Under the pieces are notes generated by a model. It ran no database searches, was not told the origin of the DNA, and saw only the letters and a list, made by a program, of their open reading frames with translations. Shown here in pieces: positions 34,428 through 38,925 of a DNA stretch of 64,000 nt (position 1 is its first letter; every line of letters begins with the position of its first letter). The position numbers were made by a program, and so were the translations under genes. The stretch comes from Bdellovibrio bacteriovorus (GTDB lineage: Bacteria; Bdellovibrionota; Bdellovibrionia; Bdellovibrionales; Bdellovibrionaceae), in the NCBI RefSeq assembly GCF_001592755.1, contig NZ_LUKF01000016.1, forward strand, positions 62,001 to 126,000, read 5' to 3'.

Positions 34428-36146
34428 TTAGGAAAATTGCCATATTTCTTCTTTTTCATAGCCATTTTTCTGCACCCATTCCTTTAATTTTTTTTCCATA
34501 TCAGAAAAGCTAGCTGTGAGAATGGCCGTGTCTTCTTTAAGTATTCCTTCTTTAAGTTTTTGCATTTTTAAGTGGCCTTGTTCTTTTTTAAATTCTTCCG
34601 AAGTCATTTTTTTATGTGCGAAAAAAGGTTTATCTTCGGAGATCTCCTCATCGAAATAAGCTCTCTCAAAATCTGGAATACTAGATATTACTTCGGCCAA
34701 AACACCCAGCGTTTTCGCATGTTCAACTATCTCAAATATTTTCTCATTCTCTCTCCACATTGCATTGGCAATTGGTTTCTTTTTTCTAATTGCTTTAGGC
34801 GCGTCAGTATCGTGCATAATTATATATGGAGTTCCAAATTGATTTAAGATTTTCGCGAACAATACTAAATTTGCTTTTCCCATACAGTTGATTATCACGA
34901 GTTCATGTCTATGAAGTTCATCTTGAAATAGGTGACTAAAGACAGTAGCTTCTGTCTCTCCTTCAACAAGAATTACTTTTCTTGCGAAAAAGAATTCGTT
35001 AATCGTTGGATGACAACTTCGAATAATTCTTAAATTTTCTCTTTCGTCATCGGTAAAAGTATTTTCTTTTACTGAAAATGCGCTTGTTTCAGCATTGTTT
35101 TTAATAGCAACAATTGTGGTATGAGGCTTGGATACATCGATAAAAACCGGCGAGTGCGTTGCAGCCATTACTTGCCATCCATCCACCGAAGCAAGGCTAT
35201 AAAGTGCCTCTCTTGCAAGTCTTACTAACGGCGGGTGAAGAAATGACTCTGGTTCGTCGATGAGTAAAATTCTTGACTTATCTGCTTTAACTACGCTCTT
35301 TCCTTTTTTTAATTTTCCCTCTTCGGCCAATGCTGAAATCGCAGACCAAAGAAAAGTACGCTGAACTCCACTTCCCTGATTCGCCAATGCTATTCCTGTA
35401 TTTTTATCAGACGTTATTGTTAAGTAAGATCCCGTTCCAATAACCTTTTCGGCTTCAAACTTACCAGATCCAGGACTTAATTTAATTCTATAACCAGGAA
35501 AGACATTTTCTACTTTGGAAGAAATCAAATTACATACTTTATCAGCCTCTTCTTTTAACTGTTCCCCTAGTTGGTTCGTTAACGTATTTATTTCCTCTAC
35601 GATCTTACCAACATTAGCGGCATCAGACTTTATGGCAGTCTTGATAGCTTCAGTTAATAGACCTACAACAGCTTCCTCTATTTTCTCATGACCATCTGTT
35701 GCTTTAATCCTCAAAGGAACAGGTATTCTACTTACTAAAAGTGAATCCCATCCACCAACGCCTCCATCAATCCAGTCATTTTTTTTGGGGTCCCAGCTTT
35801 GCTTTTTTCCTGAAGAACCAGGGGTCTCCCAGATCCACCGTACTTTAATGCTATCATGTCCATCCTCATCCTTATATTTCCAGTTATCGCCAAGAGTTTT
35901 TAAATCTTCAGTCGTAACGTGCGAGAACTCACCAGCAATTATCACTGGAGAAAGGGGTTCTTTATTAAAAAATTTTTCTTTAGCTATGCCTTGTCCTGAA
36001 GATGCAAAAGCCTCATAAGCATCTAATATCGTAGATTTCCCCACGTTATTCGGTCCGACTAGAACCACAATATTATCGATCTTTATCTTGCATCCAGTAC
36101 TTCCGATTGGACCATAATTAGATATTTCCAACTTACTAAGTCTCAT
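34428..36146 (-). CDS. OLD-family ATP-dependent endonuclease (ATPase plus TOPRIM)
   Basis: 572 residues from the ATG at 36146, which has GGGAG five bases upstream. Walker A is VGPNNVGKST (residue about 35). The ABC-type signature region, Walker B ILLIDEPESFLHP and ATHSPVF follow. The C-terminal TOPRIM domain starts VILVEGETEATVF and contains IMHDTDAP, the acidic metal motifs. Class 1 OLD nucleases such as phage P2 Old act in antiphage defence. The gene is visibly richer in A+T than its neighbours and sits 37 bases from tRNA-Gln, as transferred genes often do. Confidence 0.88.
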   Translation of the reverse strand: MRLSKLEISNYGPIGSTGCKIKIDNIVVLVGPNNVGKSTILDAYEAFASSGQGIAKEKFFNKEPLSPVIIAGEFSHVTTEDLKTLGDNWKYKDEDGHDSIKVRWIWETPGSSGKKQSWDPKKNDWIDGGVGGWDSLLVSRIPVPLRIKATDGHEKIEEAVVGLLTEAIKTAIKSDAANVGKIVEEINTLTNQLGEQLKEEADKVCNLISSKVENVFPGYRIKLSPGSGKFEAEKVIGTGSYLTITSDKNTGIALANQGSGVQRTFLWSAISALAEEGKLKKGKSVVKADKSRILLIDEPESFLHPPLVRLAREALYSLASVDGWQVMAATHSPVFIDVSKPHTTIVAIKNNAETSAFSVKENTFTDDERENLRIIRSCHPTINEFFFARKVILVEGETEATVFSHLFQDELHRHELVIINCMGKANLVLFAKILNQFGTPYIIMHDTDAPKAIRKKKPIANAMWRENEKIFEIVEHAKTLGVLAEVISSIPDFERAYFDEEISEDKPFFAHKKMTSEEFKKEQGHLKMQKLKEGILKEDTAILTASFSDMEKKLKEWVQKNGYEKEEIWQFS

Positions 36147-36280
36147 ACAATCTCCCAAACATATGTGGATAAACAGATTTGTATGTTATTAAAAATAATA
36201 ATTTGTTTGCATCAATTTCAGAAAAGACTGGCCCTTAACTAGACATAGTTTAGTCATTTAATTTTAAAACTTTGCAGGCC

Positions 36281-36333
36281 CCGGCTTCGGGACGAAAAAG
36301 CGTGACGCTTTTTCGTGGGAGGAGCCGAGCCGG
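36281..36333. other. GC-rich nested stem structure downstream of the OLD region
   Basis: An inner perfect 11-bp stem, ACGAAAAAGCG (36292-36302), TGA, CGCTTTTTCGT (36306-36316), is enclosed by an outer stem, CCGGCTTCGG (36281-36290) with CCGAGCCGG (36325-36333), with one bulge. Its GC content contrasts with the AT-rich flanks. It may be a mobile palindromic repeat, a small RNA or a terminator. No second copy is seen in the window. Confidence 0.5.
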
Positions 36334-36407: not shown

Positions 36408-36770
36408 CTAAAAAGAAGGCTTAAGAACAGCAAGCCCAATAGCCACTGACGAAAGAATCAAAATTACTCCGTAGTGAATCGCGACGAACTTGGGCTTCTT
36501 CTTAATAGCGAACGCAACCAATCCAAGAAGAATCCAACATGCCGTCTTTGCTTGCGCCCAGTTGGGAAAATTCTCGTGCATACCTAGAACTCCAACCAAC
36601 TTGAACGCTGTCACAAAAACTAAGATCCAACTAATGCCGTGGGTGATGAAGCCCCATTTGCGAAGAGCGTTTTTGCCGCCGATCCAGCATCCGCCGATTA
36701 TAAATCCCAGGCTGACAACAAGGGCCGCGATACTGATGATATGAAGTGTTTTATACGTTAAATATTCCAT
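36408..36770 (-). CDS. Four-helix membrane protein of unknown function, SoxR-controlled
   Basis: 120 residues with four hydrophobic segments (about 8-28, 38-58, 72-90, 97-116). I recognise no family. AGAGGTCC precedes the ATG. A consensus SoxR box lies in a promoter with a 19-base spacer 38 bases upstream (36799-36829) and the SoxR gene is next door, so expression is expected to be induced by redox-active compounds. In size and topology it recalls membrane proteins found in SoxR regulons, such as MexG, without clear sequence similarity. Confidence 0.72.
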   Translation of the reverse strand: MEYLTYKTLHIISIAALVVSLGFIIGGCWIGGKNALRKWGFITHGISWILVFVTAFKLVGVLGMHENFPNWAQAKTACWILLGLVAFAIKKKPKFVAIHYGVILILSSVAIGLAVLKPSF

Positions 36771-36798
36771 GAAGGACCTCTCTAGTTAATGAAGGTCC

Positions 36799-36829
36799 AC
36801 TCTAAAACCTCAGGTTAACTTGAGGTCAA
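36799..36829 (-). promoter_or_regulatory. SoxR-dependent promoter with SoxR box
   Basis: The plus strand reads CCTCAGGTTAACTTGAGG (36808-36825), a near-consensus SoxR box. On the minus strand, TTGACC (36824-36829) and TAGAGT (36799-36804) are separated by exactly 19 bases, the overlong spacer that MerR-family activators such as SoxR untwist. It drives the four-helix membrane gene. Confidence 0.88.
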
Positions 36830-36858
36830 GATACAAAAAGCTGCGGTGATACGTTCCT

Positions 36859-37305
36859 TTAGAGAAGAGCGGCACCGGGACCTTTTTTCGCTAATCTGTC
36901 TTTTGGATTTCTTAAGGGGCATTCTTTTAGAGACAAACATCCGCAACCAATGCAACTATTCAGCTGATTTTTCAGCTTCGTCATGTGCGTGATTCTTTCT
37001 TCAAGATCTTTTTTCCATTTCGTTGATATCTTTTGCCAGTCGGCTTGGGAGGGTGACCGATCTTGAGGCAACAGTTTCAAGGTTTCTGCGATTTCCAGAA
37101 GAGAAAATCCAACACTTTGCGCCGCTTTAATTATGGCAACCACGCGCAACATGCCTCGAGGAAAGCGTCTTTGATTGCCTTCCGTGCGCCATGATTTGAT
37201 CAGGCCTTTTTCTTCATAAAAATGAATAGCAGATACAGGAACGCCGGATCTTTTCGATAGCTCTCCAACACTCAGTGTTTGCCCTAATTCATTTGCGCCA
37301 GACAT
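36859..37305 (-). CDS. soxR: Redox-sensitive MerR-family activator SoxR
   Basis: 148 residues. A MerR winged-helix domain (LSVGELSKRSGVPVSAIHFY, then NQRRFPRG) is followed by a dimerisation helix and the 2Fe-2S motif, C118, C121, C123 and C129 (CxxCxCxxxxxC), the exact spacing of E. coli SoxR. It senses redox-active compounds through cluster oxidation. A second SoxR box lies immediately before its start codon, implying autoregulation. The neighbouring membrane gene is the visible target. Confidence 0.96.
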   Translation of the reverse strand: MSGANELGQTLSVGELSKRSGVPVSAIHFYEEKGLIKSWRTEGNQRRFPRGMLRVVAIIKAAQSVGFSLLEIAETLKLLPQDRSPSQADWQKISTKWKKDLEERITHMTKLKNQLNSCIGCGCLSLKECPLRNPKDRLAKKGPGAALL

Positions 37306-37310
37306 GCCAA

Positions 37311-37328
37311 CCTCAACTTTACTTGAGG
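37311..37328 (-). promoter_or_regulatory. soxR: SoxR box at the soxR start
   Basis: CCTCAACTTTACTTGAGG, an imperfect palindrome close to the SoxR consensus, only five bases from the soxR ATG at 37305. Its left half (GAGG on the minus strand) also provides the only plausible ribosome-binding site, so bound SoxR or its box may repress its own synthesis. Confidence 0.8.
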
Positions 37329-37365: not shown

Positions 37366-38925
37366 TTAAACAGTTTCCGGCTTAAGACTTATCTCTCTGG
37401 CTTCCTCACCGTGACTCGAGTTCAGGGGCGTCGGTTCAGGGTAAAGATCCTGATAGGTTTTAATGTGATTCTCATCGATGCGCTTGTACAAGTCCGCGCG
37501 GCTGAGATCTTGATGTCTTGAGAATCCCATCGCGCCGATAATATGCGCCACTGTTCCCAGGGTTTCGCCGTGGAAATTCTTAACACGTTCGCGCTTCGTG
37601 GGAACGTGAAGACCTTTTACCAAATTTGGATCTTGTGTTGCTACTCCCGTCGGGCATTTGTTGTTGTTGCAGCGAAGGGCCTGAATACAACCCAAGGCCA
37701 ACAACATCGAGCGAGCCGCATAAGTGGCATCAGCACCAATACAAAGAAGCTTCACGATATCAAACGCCGTCGTGATTTTTCCTGTCGCCAATACTTTTAC
37801 TTTATCGCGCACGCCAAATTTTTTAAGAGTATCTACGACAATCACCAAAGCGTCGATGCCGGGCATACCCATGTAGTTTGAAAATTCCAAAGGCGCAGCA
37901 CCCGTCCCACCTTCAGCTCCGTCAACGGCGATGAAGTCAGGATAAGAATTCTTTTTCGCCATTAGCGACACCAGCTCTTCAAATTCTCTGCGATGCCCTA
38001 AGCATAGTTTAATACCGACGGGTTTTCCGCCGGAAAGTTCGCGCAAGGTTTCAATGAAGGTCAACATCTCTGCGGCATCGTGGAAAGCACTATGTCCCGG
38101 AGGAGAAATCACGTCTTTCCCTAAAGGAACGTTACGAATATTTGCGATCTCTTGCGTGACTTTCTTTCCCGATAAGATCCCGCCATGCCCCGGCTTAGCA
38201 CCCTGAGAGAGCTTAATCTCAATCATCTTCACATGAGGGTGTCGCGAATTCTTTTTGAAAAGCTCGGGATCAAAAACGCCGTCATGAGTGCGGCAACCGA
38301 AATAACCTGTTCCAATTTGCCAAATGAGATCTCCACCCATTTCTAAGTGATACGGAGAAATACCACCTTCCCCCGTGTTATGAGCGAAGTCGCCATCTTT
38401 AGCGCCGCCATTCAAAGATAGAATCGCGTTCGTCGAAAGAGAACCAAAGCTCATTGCAGAGATATTTAGTAAAGATAATGAGTAAGGCTGTTTACATTTT
38501 TCTCCGCCCACCATGATGCGCAGATCTTTTTCACTGACATGTTTGGGATACATGGAGTGAGTCACAAACTCATAACCTTGTTTATAAACATCGTGCTGAG
38601 TTCCAAACGGAACAGTGTCTAAAACTTTTTTGGCGCGCTGATAAACCACCGAACGTTGTTCACGACTGAACGGGCGGCCGTCTGTATTTGACTCGATAAA
38701 GTACTGATTGATCTCGGGGCGAATCGATTCCAAAAGATAACGAAAATGCCCAAAGACCGGAAAGTTTGACTTGATCGCATGACGAGTTTGACGAATATCG
38801 CGAATACCCAAGGCGAAAAAGGGAACGAAAAAGAAGAGAGATAACAACCCGATCGTCCAATAGAAATAAAATAAAACGTTCAACGCACACACGACCACAA
38901 GGGCGATGTAAAACTCTTTTCTCAT
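37366..38925 (-). CDS. FMN-binding glutamate-synthase-like protein, membrane-anchored
   Basis: 519 residues. Two N-terminal hydrophobic segments (residues about 6-45) precede a glutamate synthase alpha-subunit barrel: SLLNISAMSFGSLSTNAI, GEGGISPYHL, IEIKLSQGAKPGHGG, AVDGAEGGTGAAP for FMN binding, and CIQALRCNNNKC for the 3Fe-4S cluster. It lacks the amidotransferase domain, so the true reaction is unknown. Stand-alone proteins of this kind are widespread. Confidence 0.88.
   Translation of the reverse strand: MRKEFYIALVVVCALNVLFYFYWTIGLLSLFFFVPFFALGIRDIRQTRHAIKSNFPVFGHFRYLLESIRPEINQYFIESNTDGRPFSREQRSVVYQRAKKVLDTVPFGTQHDVYKQGYEFVTHSMYPKHVSEKDLRIMVGGEKCKQPYSLSLLNISAMSFGSLSTNAILSLNGGAKDGDFAHNTGEGGISPYHLEMGGDLIWQIGTGYFGCRTHDGVFDPELFKKNSRHPHVKMIEIKLSQGAKPGHGGILSGKKVTQEIANIRNVPLGKDVISPPGHSAFHDAAEMLTFIETLRELSGGKPVGIKLCLGHRREFEELVSLMAKKNSYPDFIAVDGAEGGTGAAPLEFSNYMGMPGIDALVIVVDTLKKFGVRDKVKVLATGKITTAFDIVKLLCIGADATYAARSMLLALGCIQALRCNNNKCPTGVATQDPNLVKGLHVPTKRERVKNFHGETLGTVAHIIGAMGFSRHQDLSRADLYKRIDENHIKTYQDLYPEPTPLNSSHGEEAREISLKPETV

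What the first reader, a model, noticed from the sequence alone, without database searches (positions are those of the whole stretch)
36408..37328. Small SoxR regulon controlling an unknown membrane protein
SoxR, a box at its own start, and a second box in a 19-base-spacer promoter before a four-helix membrane protein form a complete unit. The target is not a known SoxR gene to me. In pseudomonads and streptomycetes SoxR controls export or reduction of redox-active small molecules, so this protein may handle such compounds.
Basis: partly seen in the sequence, partly recalled or inferred. Interest (0 to 1): 0.65.

Follow-up and report, generated by a model that had tools for sequence, protein, structure and literature searches.

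The report
SoxR switch for orphan membrane protein
In this Bdellovibrio-type predator, the redox sensor SoxR almost certainly controls one small membrane protein of unknown function, and the pair with the same control site recurs in 11 related genomes, so a protein family without a known job now has a testable link to redox-active chemicals.

Summary
The window holds a clear SoxR (206 bits to TIGR01950; four-cysteine motif intact), a SoxR box 5 nt before soxR, and a second box, one mismatch from the E. coli soxS operator, inside a TTGACC-19-TAGAGT promoter before a 120-aa four-helix membrane protein. These are the only two sites within three mismatches of the operator in the 3.66 Mb genome. 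A distinct clade of this protein (support 100/99) occurs in 11 of 369 Bdellovibrionota genomes searched; all 11 have soxR, and all 11 genes carry the same box and 19-bp-spacer promoter, two of them far from soxR. Other relatives (110 loci checked) have no box. Within the genus, 8 of 8 soxR genomes have the extra copy and 0 of 16 others do. Related SoxRs sit over Fe-superoxide dismutase, dehydrogenase, N-acetyltransferase and TPMT genes with the same promoter. The protein is a SirB-like (PF04247, just under cut-off) four-helix bundle with invariant His10 and Lys75, faintly reminiscent of HemJ. Regulation by SoxR is near certain; the protein's action, probably redox handling at the inner membrane, is not shown.

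The parts
36859..37305 (-). soxR, 148 aa [2Fe-2S] MerR-family redox sensor
   Evidence: TIGR01950 206.2 bits vs cut-off 116.9; E. coli SoxR 2zhg E=1e-45; CIGCGCLSLKEC motif
37311..37328 (-). SoxR box 1, 5 nt before the soxR start; probable autorepression site
   Evidence: CCTCAACTTTACTTGAGG; no TAnnnT 19 nt from a -35 on the soxR side; same position as the S. maltophilia soxR box (PMC4411124)
36808..36825 (-). SoxR box 2, in the promoter of the membrane gene
   Evidence: CCTCAGGTTAACTTGAGG, 1 mismatch to the E. coli soxS operator
36824..36829 (-). -35 hexamer TTGACC
   Evidence: TTGACC or TTGATC at the same place in all 11 homologous promoters
36799..36804 (-). -10 hexamer TAGAGT, 19-nt spacer
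   Evidence: TAnnnT at exactly 19 nt in all 11 homologues and in 11 other SoxR-box promoters of the phylum
36408..36770 (-). SirB-like four-helix inner-membrane protein, 120 aa, the SoxR target
   Evidence: PF04247 E=1.3e-6, 28.9 bits vs cut-off 30.9; AlphaFold2 four helices, pLDDT 95; SoxR-linked clade support 100/99

Best explanation
This is a two-gene SoxR circuit with, as far as the box search shows, a single target. SoxR sits on the overlong 19-bp spacer of the membrane gene's promoter. When redox-cycling compounds oxidise its [2Fe-2S] cluster, SoxR distorts the DNA so that RNA polymerase can use the promoter, and the SirB-like membrane protein is made. A second box over the soxR start lets SoxR limit its own synthesis. 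The protein is a four-helix inner-membrane bundle whose most conserved residues (Tyr3, Lys7, His10 in helix 1; Trp71 and Lys75 at the start of helix 3; Lys117-Pro118 at the end of helix 4) lie at one face, by charge rule the periplasmic one. I think it most likely binds a redox-active small molecule or cofactor (quinone, haem or a redox cycler) there and so limits redox cycling at the respiratory membrane. Shown by sequence: the sensor, the sites, the promoter geometry, their conservation and the co-inheritance. Inferred from SoxR biology: activation by oxidants and self-repression. Inferred weakly, about 0.3: what the membrane protein does. The confidence below is for the regulatory circuit.
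For: SoxR identity. Only two operator-like sites in the genome, both here. TTGACC/TTGATC-19-TAnnnT with a central box in 11/11 SoxR-associated homologues, down to 34-46% protein identity. In G091 and G105 the homologue lies 42 and 66 kb from soxR yet keeps the box, so the box serves the membrane gene itself. 0 boxes in 80 housekeeping loci (398 kb) and 30 Myxococcota loci (98 kb). Genus co-occurrence is 8/8 vs 0/16. The clade is single with 100/99 support. SoxRs paired with it separate cleanly from those paired with the dehydrogenase. The same promoter stands before Fe-SOD in three genomes, so SoxRs of this phylum do serve redox stress.
Against: No expression or binding data exist for this locus. 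Co-occurrence counts are not independent, because the genes are usually adjacent and inherited together. Nothing shows the protein binds any cofactor; the PDB fold search gave only generic helical bundles with no significant match. HemJ similarity is within reach of shuffled controls. Periplasmic placement rests on positive loops alone. The box search misses degenerate sites, so further targets are possible.
Confidence: 0.85

Rival explanations
1. The membrane protein is an accessory of small-molecule export, like MexG of the SoxR-controlled MexGHI-OpmD pump: it binds or passes redox-active compounds to an exporter encoded elsewhere.
For: In P. aeruginosa and S. maltophilia SoxR controls transporters (PMC4146615, PMC4411124). 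MexG is itself a small four-helix protein (own knowledge). The gene stands alone, as an accessory could.
Against: No transporter gene is adjacent or carries a box in this genome. No Pfam link to DoxX, the MexG family, was seen. Invariant His and Lys inside the bundle suit a cofactor or enzyme site better.
Confidence: 0.25
2. It is a haem-pathway protein of the HemJ type, induced to sustain porphyrin oxidation or haem supply when superoxide damages metabolism.
For: Profile comparison aligns K..H of helix 1 and W...K of helix 3 with invariant HemJ residues, E about 2e-4, 117 columns. The genome has no HemJ hit.
Against: Block-shuffled HemJ profiles reach the same score once in 40. HemJ's other invariant motifs (W-AG, R-LF-Y, N-E) are absent. 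The window protein does not hit PF03653. Most genomes keep a second, housekeeping copy of the family.
Confidence: 0.12
3. It is a feedback part that passes electrons to oxidised SoxR and resets it, replacing the Rsx complex.
For: No RnfC/RsxC above cut-off in any of 14 genomes tested. Dedicated pairing with soxR across 11 genomes.
Against: SoxRs in related genomes work without it, next to SOD or dehydrogenase genes. Many SoxR bacteria lack Rsx (own knowledge). A membrane protein with no cytoplasmic domain is an unlikely direct reductase.
Confidence: 0.08
4. The box near the membrane gene is only a soxR autoregulatory site that happens to lie close by.
For: In seven genomes the two genes are divergent and share one box.
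Against: In the window each gene has its own box. In G091 and G105 the membrane gene is tens of kb from soxR and still has the box and 19-bp promoter.
Confidence: 0.02

Closest known systems
SoxR-mfsA of Stenotrophomonas maltophilia (PMC4411124)
   Same: soxR next to one membrane-protein target; box between -35 and -10 with a 19-bp spacer; box 7 bp before the soxR ATG with autorepression (5 nt here)
   Different: The target there is a 14-helix MFS exporter giving paraquat resistance; here a 4-helix SirB-like protein. In the window the genes are in tandem with two boxes instead of one shared box.
SoxR-mexGHI-opmD of Pseudomonas aeruginosa
   Same: Small SoxR regulon (PMC4146615) that includes a small four-helix membrane protein, MexG (own knowledge)
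   Different: MexG is DoxX-like and sits in an efflux operon; this gene is alone and not DoxX-like by Pfam.
SoxRS of Escherichia coli
   Same: Sensor and operator sequence; 73/138 identity
   Different: Here SoxR acts directly on the effector; the only operator-like sites in the genome are the two at this locus, and none stands before a regulator gene like soxS.
SirB family, PF04247
   Same: Full-length weak profile match; 54 of 66 relatives match it
   Different: The window protein is under Pfam's cut-off and belongs to a separate SoxR-linked clade.
HemJ / UPF0093, PF03653
   Same: Helical membrane protein; His in helix 1 and W...K in helix 3 align
   Different: Other HemJ motifs missing; similarity not beyond controls.

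Membership tests
SoxR (TIGR01950) | Score above the NCBIfam equivalog cut-off | tested here: met
   206.2 vs 116.9 bits
SoxR (TIGR01950) | CxxCxC-x5-C cluster-binding motif | tested here: met
   CIGCGCLSLKEC
SoxR (TIGR01950) | Redox-active [2Fe-2S] cluster and response to redox cyclers | not testable with these tools
   Needs purified protein or a reporter assay
SoxR-activated promoter | 18-bp dyad CCTCAAGTTAACTTGAGG or close, centred in the spacer | tested here: met
   1 mismatch at 36808-36825
SoxR-activated promoter | Overlong 19-bp spacer between sigma-70-like hexamers | tested here: met
   TTGACC-19-TAGAGT, conserved in 11/11 homologues
SoxR-activated promoter | SoxR binding and oxidant-induced transcription | not testable with these tools
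   No expression data for this genome
SirB (PF04247) | Score above Pfam gathering cut-off | tested here: not met
   28.9 vs 30.9 bits, full-length E=1.3e-6; so called SirB-like, not filed as a member
HemJ / UPF0093 (PF03653) | Match to the family profile | tested here: not met
   No PF03653 hit for the window protein at E<=1; no HemJ in this genome
HemJ / UPF0093 (PF03653) | Bound b-type haem | not testable with these tools
   Needs purified protein
DoxX / MexG | Match to the DoxX profile | tested here: not met
   Only SirB and a weak NDUF_C2 hit at E<=1

The most novel reading that the evidence does not exclude
A previously unrecognised class of SoxR effector: a dedicated SirB-family membrane redox protein (haem- or quinone-binding through His10 and Lys75) that defuses redox cyclers at the inner membrane, carried as a portable soxR-effector module among predatory Bdellovibrionota, perhaps to survive phenazines and quinones released by prey.
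Probability: 0.2. Interest if true: 0.7.

Novelty: new variant of a known kind. Interest (0 to 1): 0.45.

Why it matters
SoxR regulation is well known, but its targets define what each bacterium does about redox-active chemicals. Here the target belongs to a family with no established biochemical function, found across many phyla as a housekeeping gene, and a SoxR-dedicated clade of it gives a clear hint of when it is needed. It also outlines SoxR regulons in Bdellovibrionota, where in related genomes SoxR boxes stand before superoxide dismutase and detoxifying enzymes, unlike the transporter-centred regulons of pseudomonads and streptomycetes.

Tried and rejected
A genome-contig scan with the SoxR-linked profile found no relatives, and an alignment of all 11 was too diverse to use. 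Plasmid and viral searches found none. Myxococcota relatives (30 loci) carry no box. Foldseek and VIA-align against PDB gave only generic four-helix bundles, de novo designs, chemoreceptor and talin bundles, with cytochrome b561 at E=1.0; no inference drawn. HemJ kinship looked attractive, but one of 40 block-shuffled profiles scored higher for each query, so it is kept as a weak lead. Other genome sites with 1 mismatch in the palindrome arms (such as C1:7910, C8:34517, C12:284119) lack the GTTAAC centre, and the three that were read (L002-L004) lie inside coding regions, so they were not taken as targets. Literature searches for SoxR with SirB and for SoxR with Bdellovibrio gave nothing on this pair beyond a table entry naming Bd1002 as soxR. 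Pseudomonadota were not searched for the pair.

Full report
WHAT IS THERE. The window is part of a 3.66 Mb genome whose housekeeping SirB-like copy is closest to Bdellovibrio sp. records. On the minus strand, soxR (36859-37305) is followed by a 120-aa membrane protein gene (36408-36770). SoxR scores 206.2 bits to TIGR01950, against a cut-off of 116.9, aligns with E. coli SoxR 2zhg at E=1e-45 and keeps CIGCGCLSLKEC. It is the only SoxR in the genome; the next hit is E=0.0043.

THE BOXES. Box 1, CCTCAACTTTACTTGAGG at 37311-37328, ends 5 nt before the soxR ATG. Box 2, CCTCAGGTTAACTTGAGG at 36808-36825, differs from the E. coli soxS operator in one base. A scan of the whole genome for the 18-mer with up to three mismatches returned just these two; with uniform bases about 1.2 chance sites are expected at three mismatches and 0.003 at one. 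Box 2 lies in TTGACC-19-TAGAGT, 37 nt from the start codon. Box 1 has no such promoter on the soxR side. In S. maltophilia a box 7 bp before the soxR ATG, covering the transcription start, mediates autorepression, while the same box activates divergent mfsA through a 19-bp spacer (PMC4411124). I read box 1 the same way (inference).

COMPARATIVE TEST. I searched 369 genomes of the phylum for the membrane protein and for SoxR. SoxR is in 21. In the genus, 8 of 24 genomes have SoxR, and exactly those 8 have a second, closer copy of the membrane protein (Fisher p about 1e-6; the genomes are not independent, so this is only descriptive). Three more genomes in another family have it (G086, G091, G105), again with SoxR. 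All 11 genes have a box in TTGACC/TTGATC-19-TAnnnT, although the proteins share as little as 34% with the window's. In six genus genomes and G086 the gene and soxR are divergent and share one box; in the window and G135 they are in tandem and each has its own; in G091 and G105 the gene is 42 and 66 kb from soxR and still has the box. So the site belongs to the membrane gene. In the window the soxR box still has TAGCAT on its far side, where a divergent promoter's -10 would be, but its -35 is CCAACC: probably a relic of the shared promoter (inference).

CONTROLS. 80 housekeeping relatives in many phyla (398 kb) and 30 Myxococcota relatives (98 kb) have no box; this genome's own housekeeping copy, next to lpxD, has none either. 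A tree of 77 proteins puts the 11 SoxR-linked ones in one clade, 100/99. SoxRs paired with this protein separate from those paired with a short-chain dehydrogenase (100/99), although three of the former come from the same family of bacteria as the latter. That fits a soxR-effector module that is inherited or moved together.

OTHER SoxR TARGETS IN THE PHYLUM. The same TTGACC-19-TAnnnT promoter with box stands before Fe-superoxide dismutase (G168, G003, G189), a short-chain dehydrogenase (seven genomes of one family carry it next to soxR; six promoters read), a TPMT-type methyltransferase (G030) and, with TTGCCC, a small ORF followed by an arylamine N-acetyltransferase (G091). So these SoxRs appear to serve redox stress and small-molecule modification. 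[quoted passage not shown] here superoxide dismutase appears to be one.

THE PROTEIN. Pfam gives SirB (PF04247) over the full length, 28.9 bits, under the 30.9 cut-off; 54 of 66 relatives match SirB. AlphaFold2 gives four helices, 3-30, 35-61, 70-91 and 93-116, at mean pLDDT 95. Tyr6, His10 and Lys75 are reported invariant in the 66-sequence alignment; within the SoxR-linked clade Tyr3, Lys7, His10, Trp71, Lys75 and Lys117-Pro118 are invariant. Solved structures gave no informative match. HemJ aligns with matching His and Lys, but shuffled controls reach the same score. RnfC/RsxC is absent above cut-off, so how SoxR is re-reduced here is open.

MECHANISM. Shown by sequence: sensor, operators, promoter geometry, conservation, co-inheritance. 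Inferred from SoxR biology: oxidised SoxR activates the promoter; SoxR limits its own synthesis. Inferred weakly: the protein binds a quinone, haem or redox cycler at the periplasmic side of the inner membrane and limits redox cycling. Export accessory, HemJ-type function and SoxR resetting are the rivals.

NOVELTY. I found no report of a SoxR-SirB link in the open literature held here; subscription papers were not searched. The control logic is classical; the effector is new. Hence new variant of a known kind, moderate interest.

Noticed in passing
34428-36158 (-): OLD-family AAA + TOPRIM nuclease (PADLOC Old, E=2.7e-87; GC 0.374 against 0.454 for the window) directly downstream of the membrane gene. 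In the close relative G135 (L008) other genes stand there, so it looks like a recently inserted defence gene.
   Followed up: partly
36292-36316: Perfect inverted repeat ACGAAAAAGCG-TGA-CGCTTTTTCGT inside a GC-rich block between the membrane gene and the OLD gene; REP-like or terminator-like.
   Followed up: no
G000:C12:43039-43398 (L080 2034-2399): Housekeeping SirB-like paralogue 12 bp after an lpxD-like gene on the same strand; relatives of it occur in Bdellovibrionota, Myxococcota, Verrucomicrobia, Acidobacteria and others. Function unknown.
   Followed up: partly
37366-38925 (-): Stand-alone glutamate-synthase-domain protein (PF01645) with a hydrophobic N-terminus, ending 60 bp before soxR on the same strand, so read-through into soxR is possible; the same neighbour is found in G135.
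   Followed up: no
L060 1501-1518 (G030): SoxR-type box lies between a TPMT-type methyltransferase gene and a second, non-SoxR MerR-family gene; a possible relay of SoxR to another MerR regulator.
   Followed up: no
L079 1542-1559 (G091): Perfect SoxR box before a small ORF and an arylamine N-acetyltransferase gene, unlinked to soxR.
   Followed up: partly
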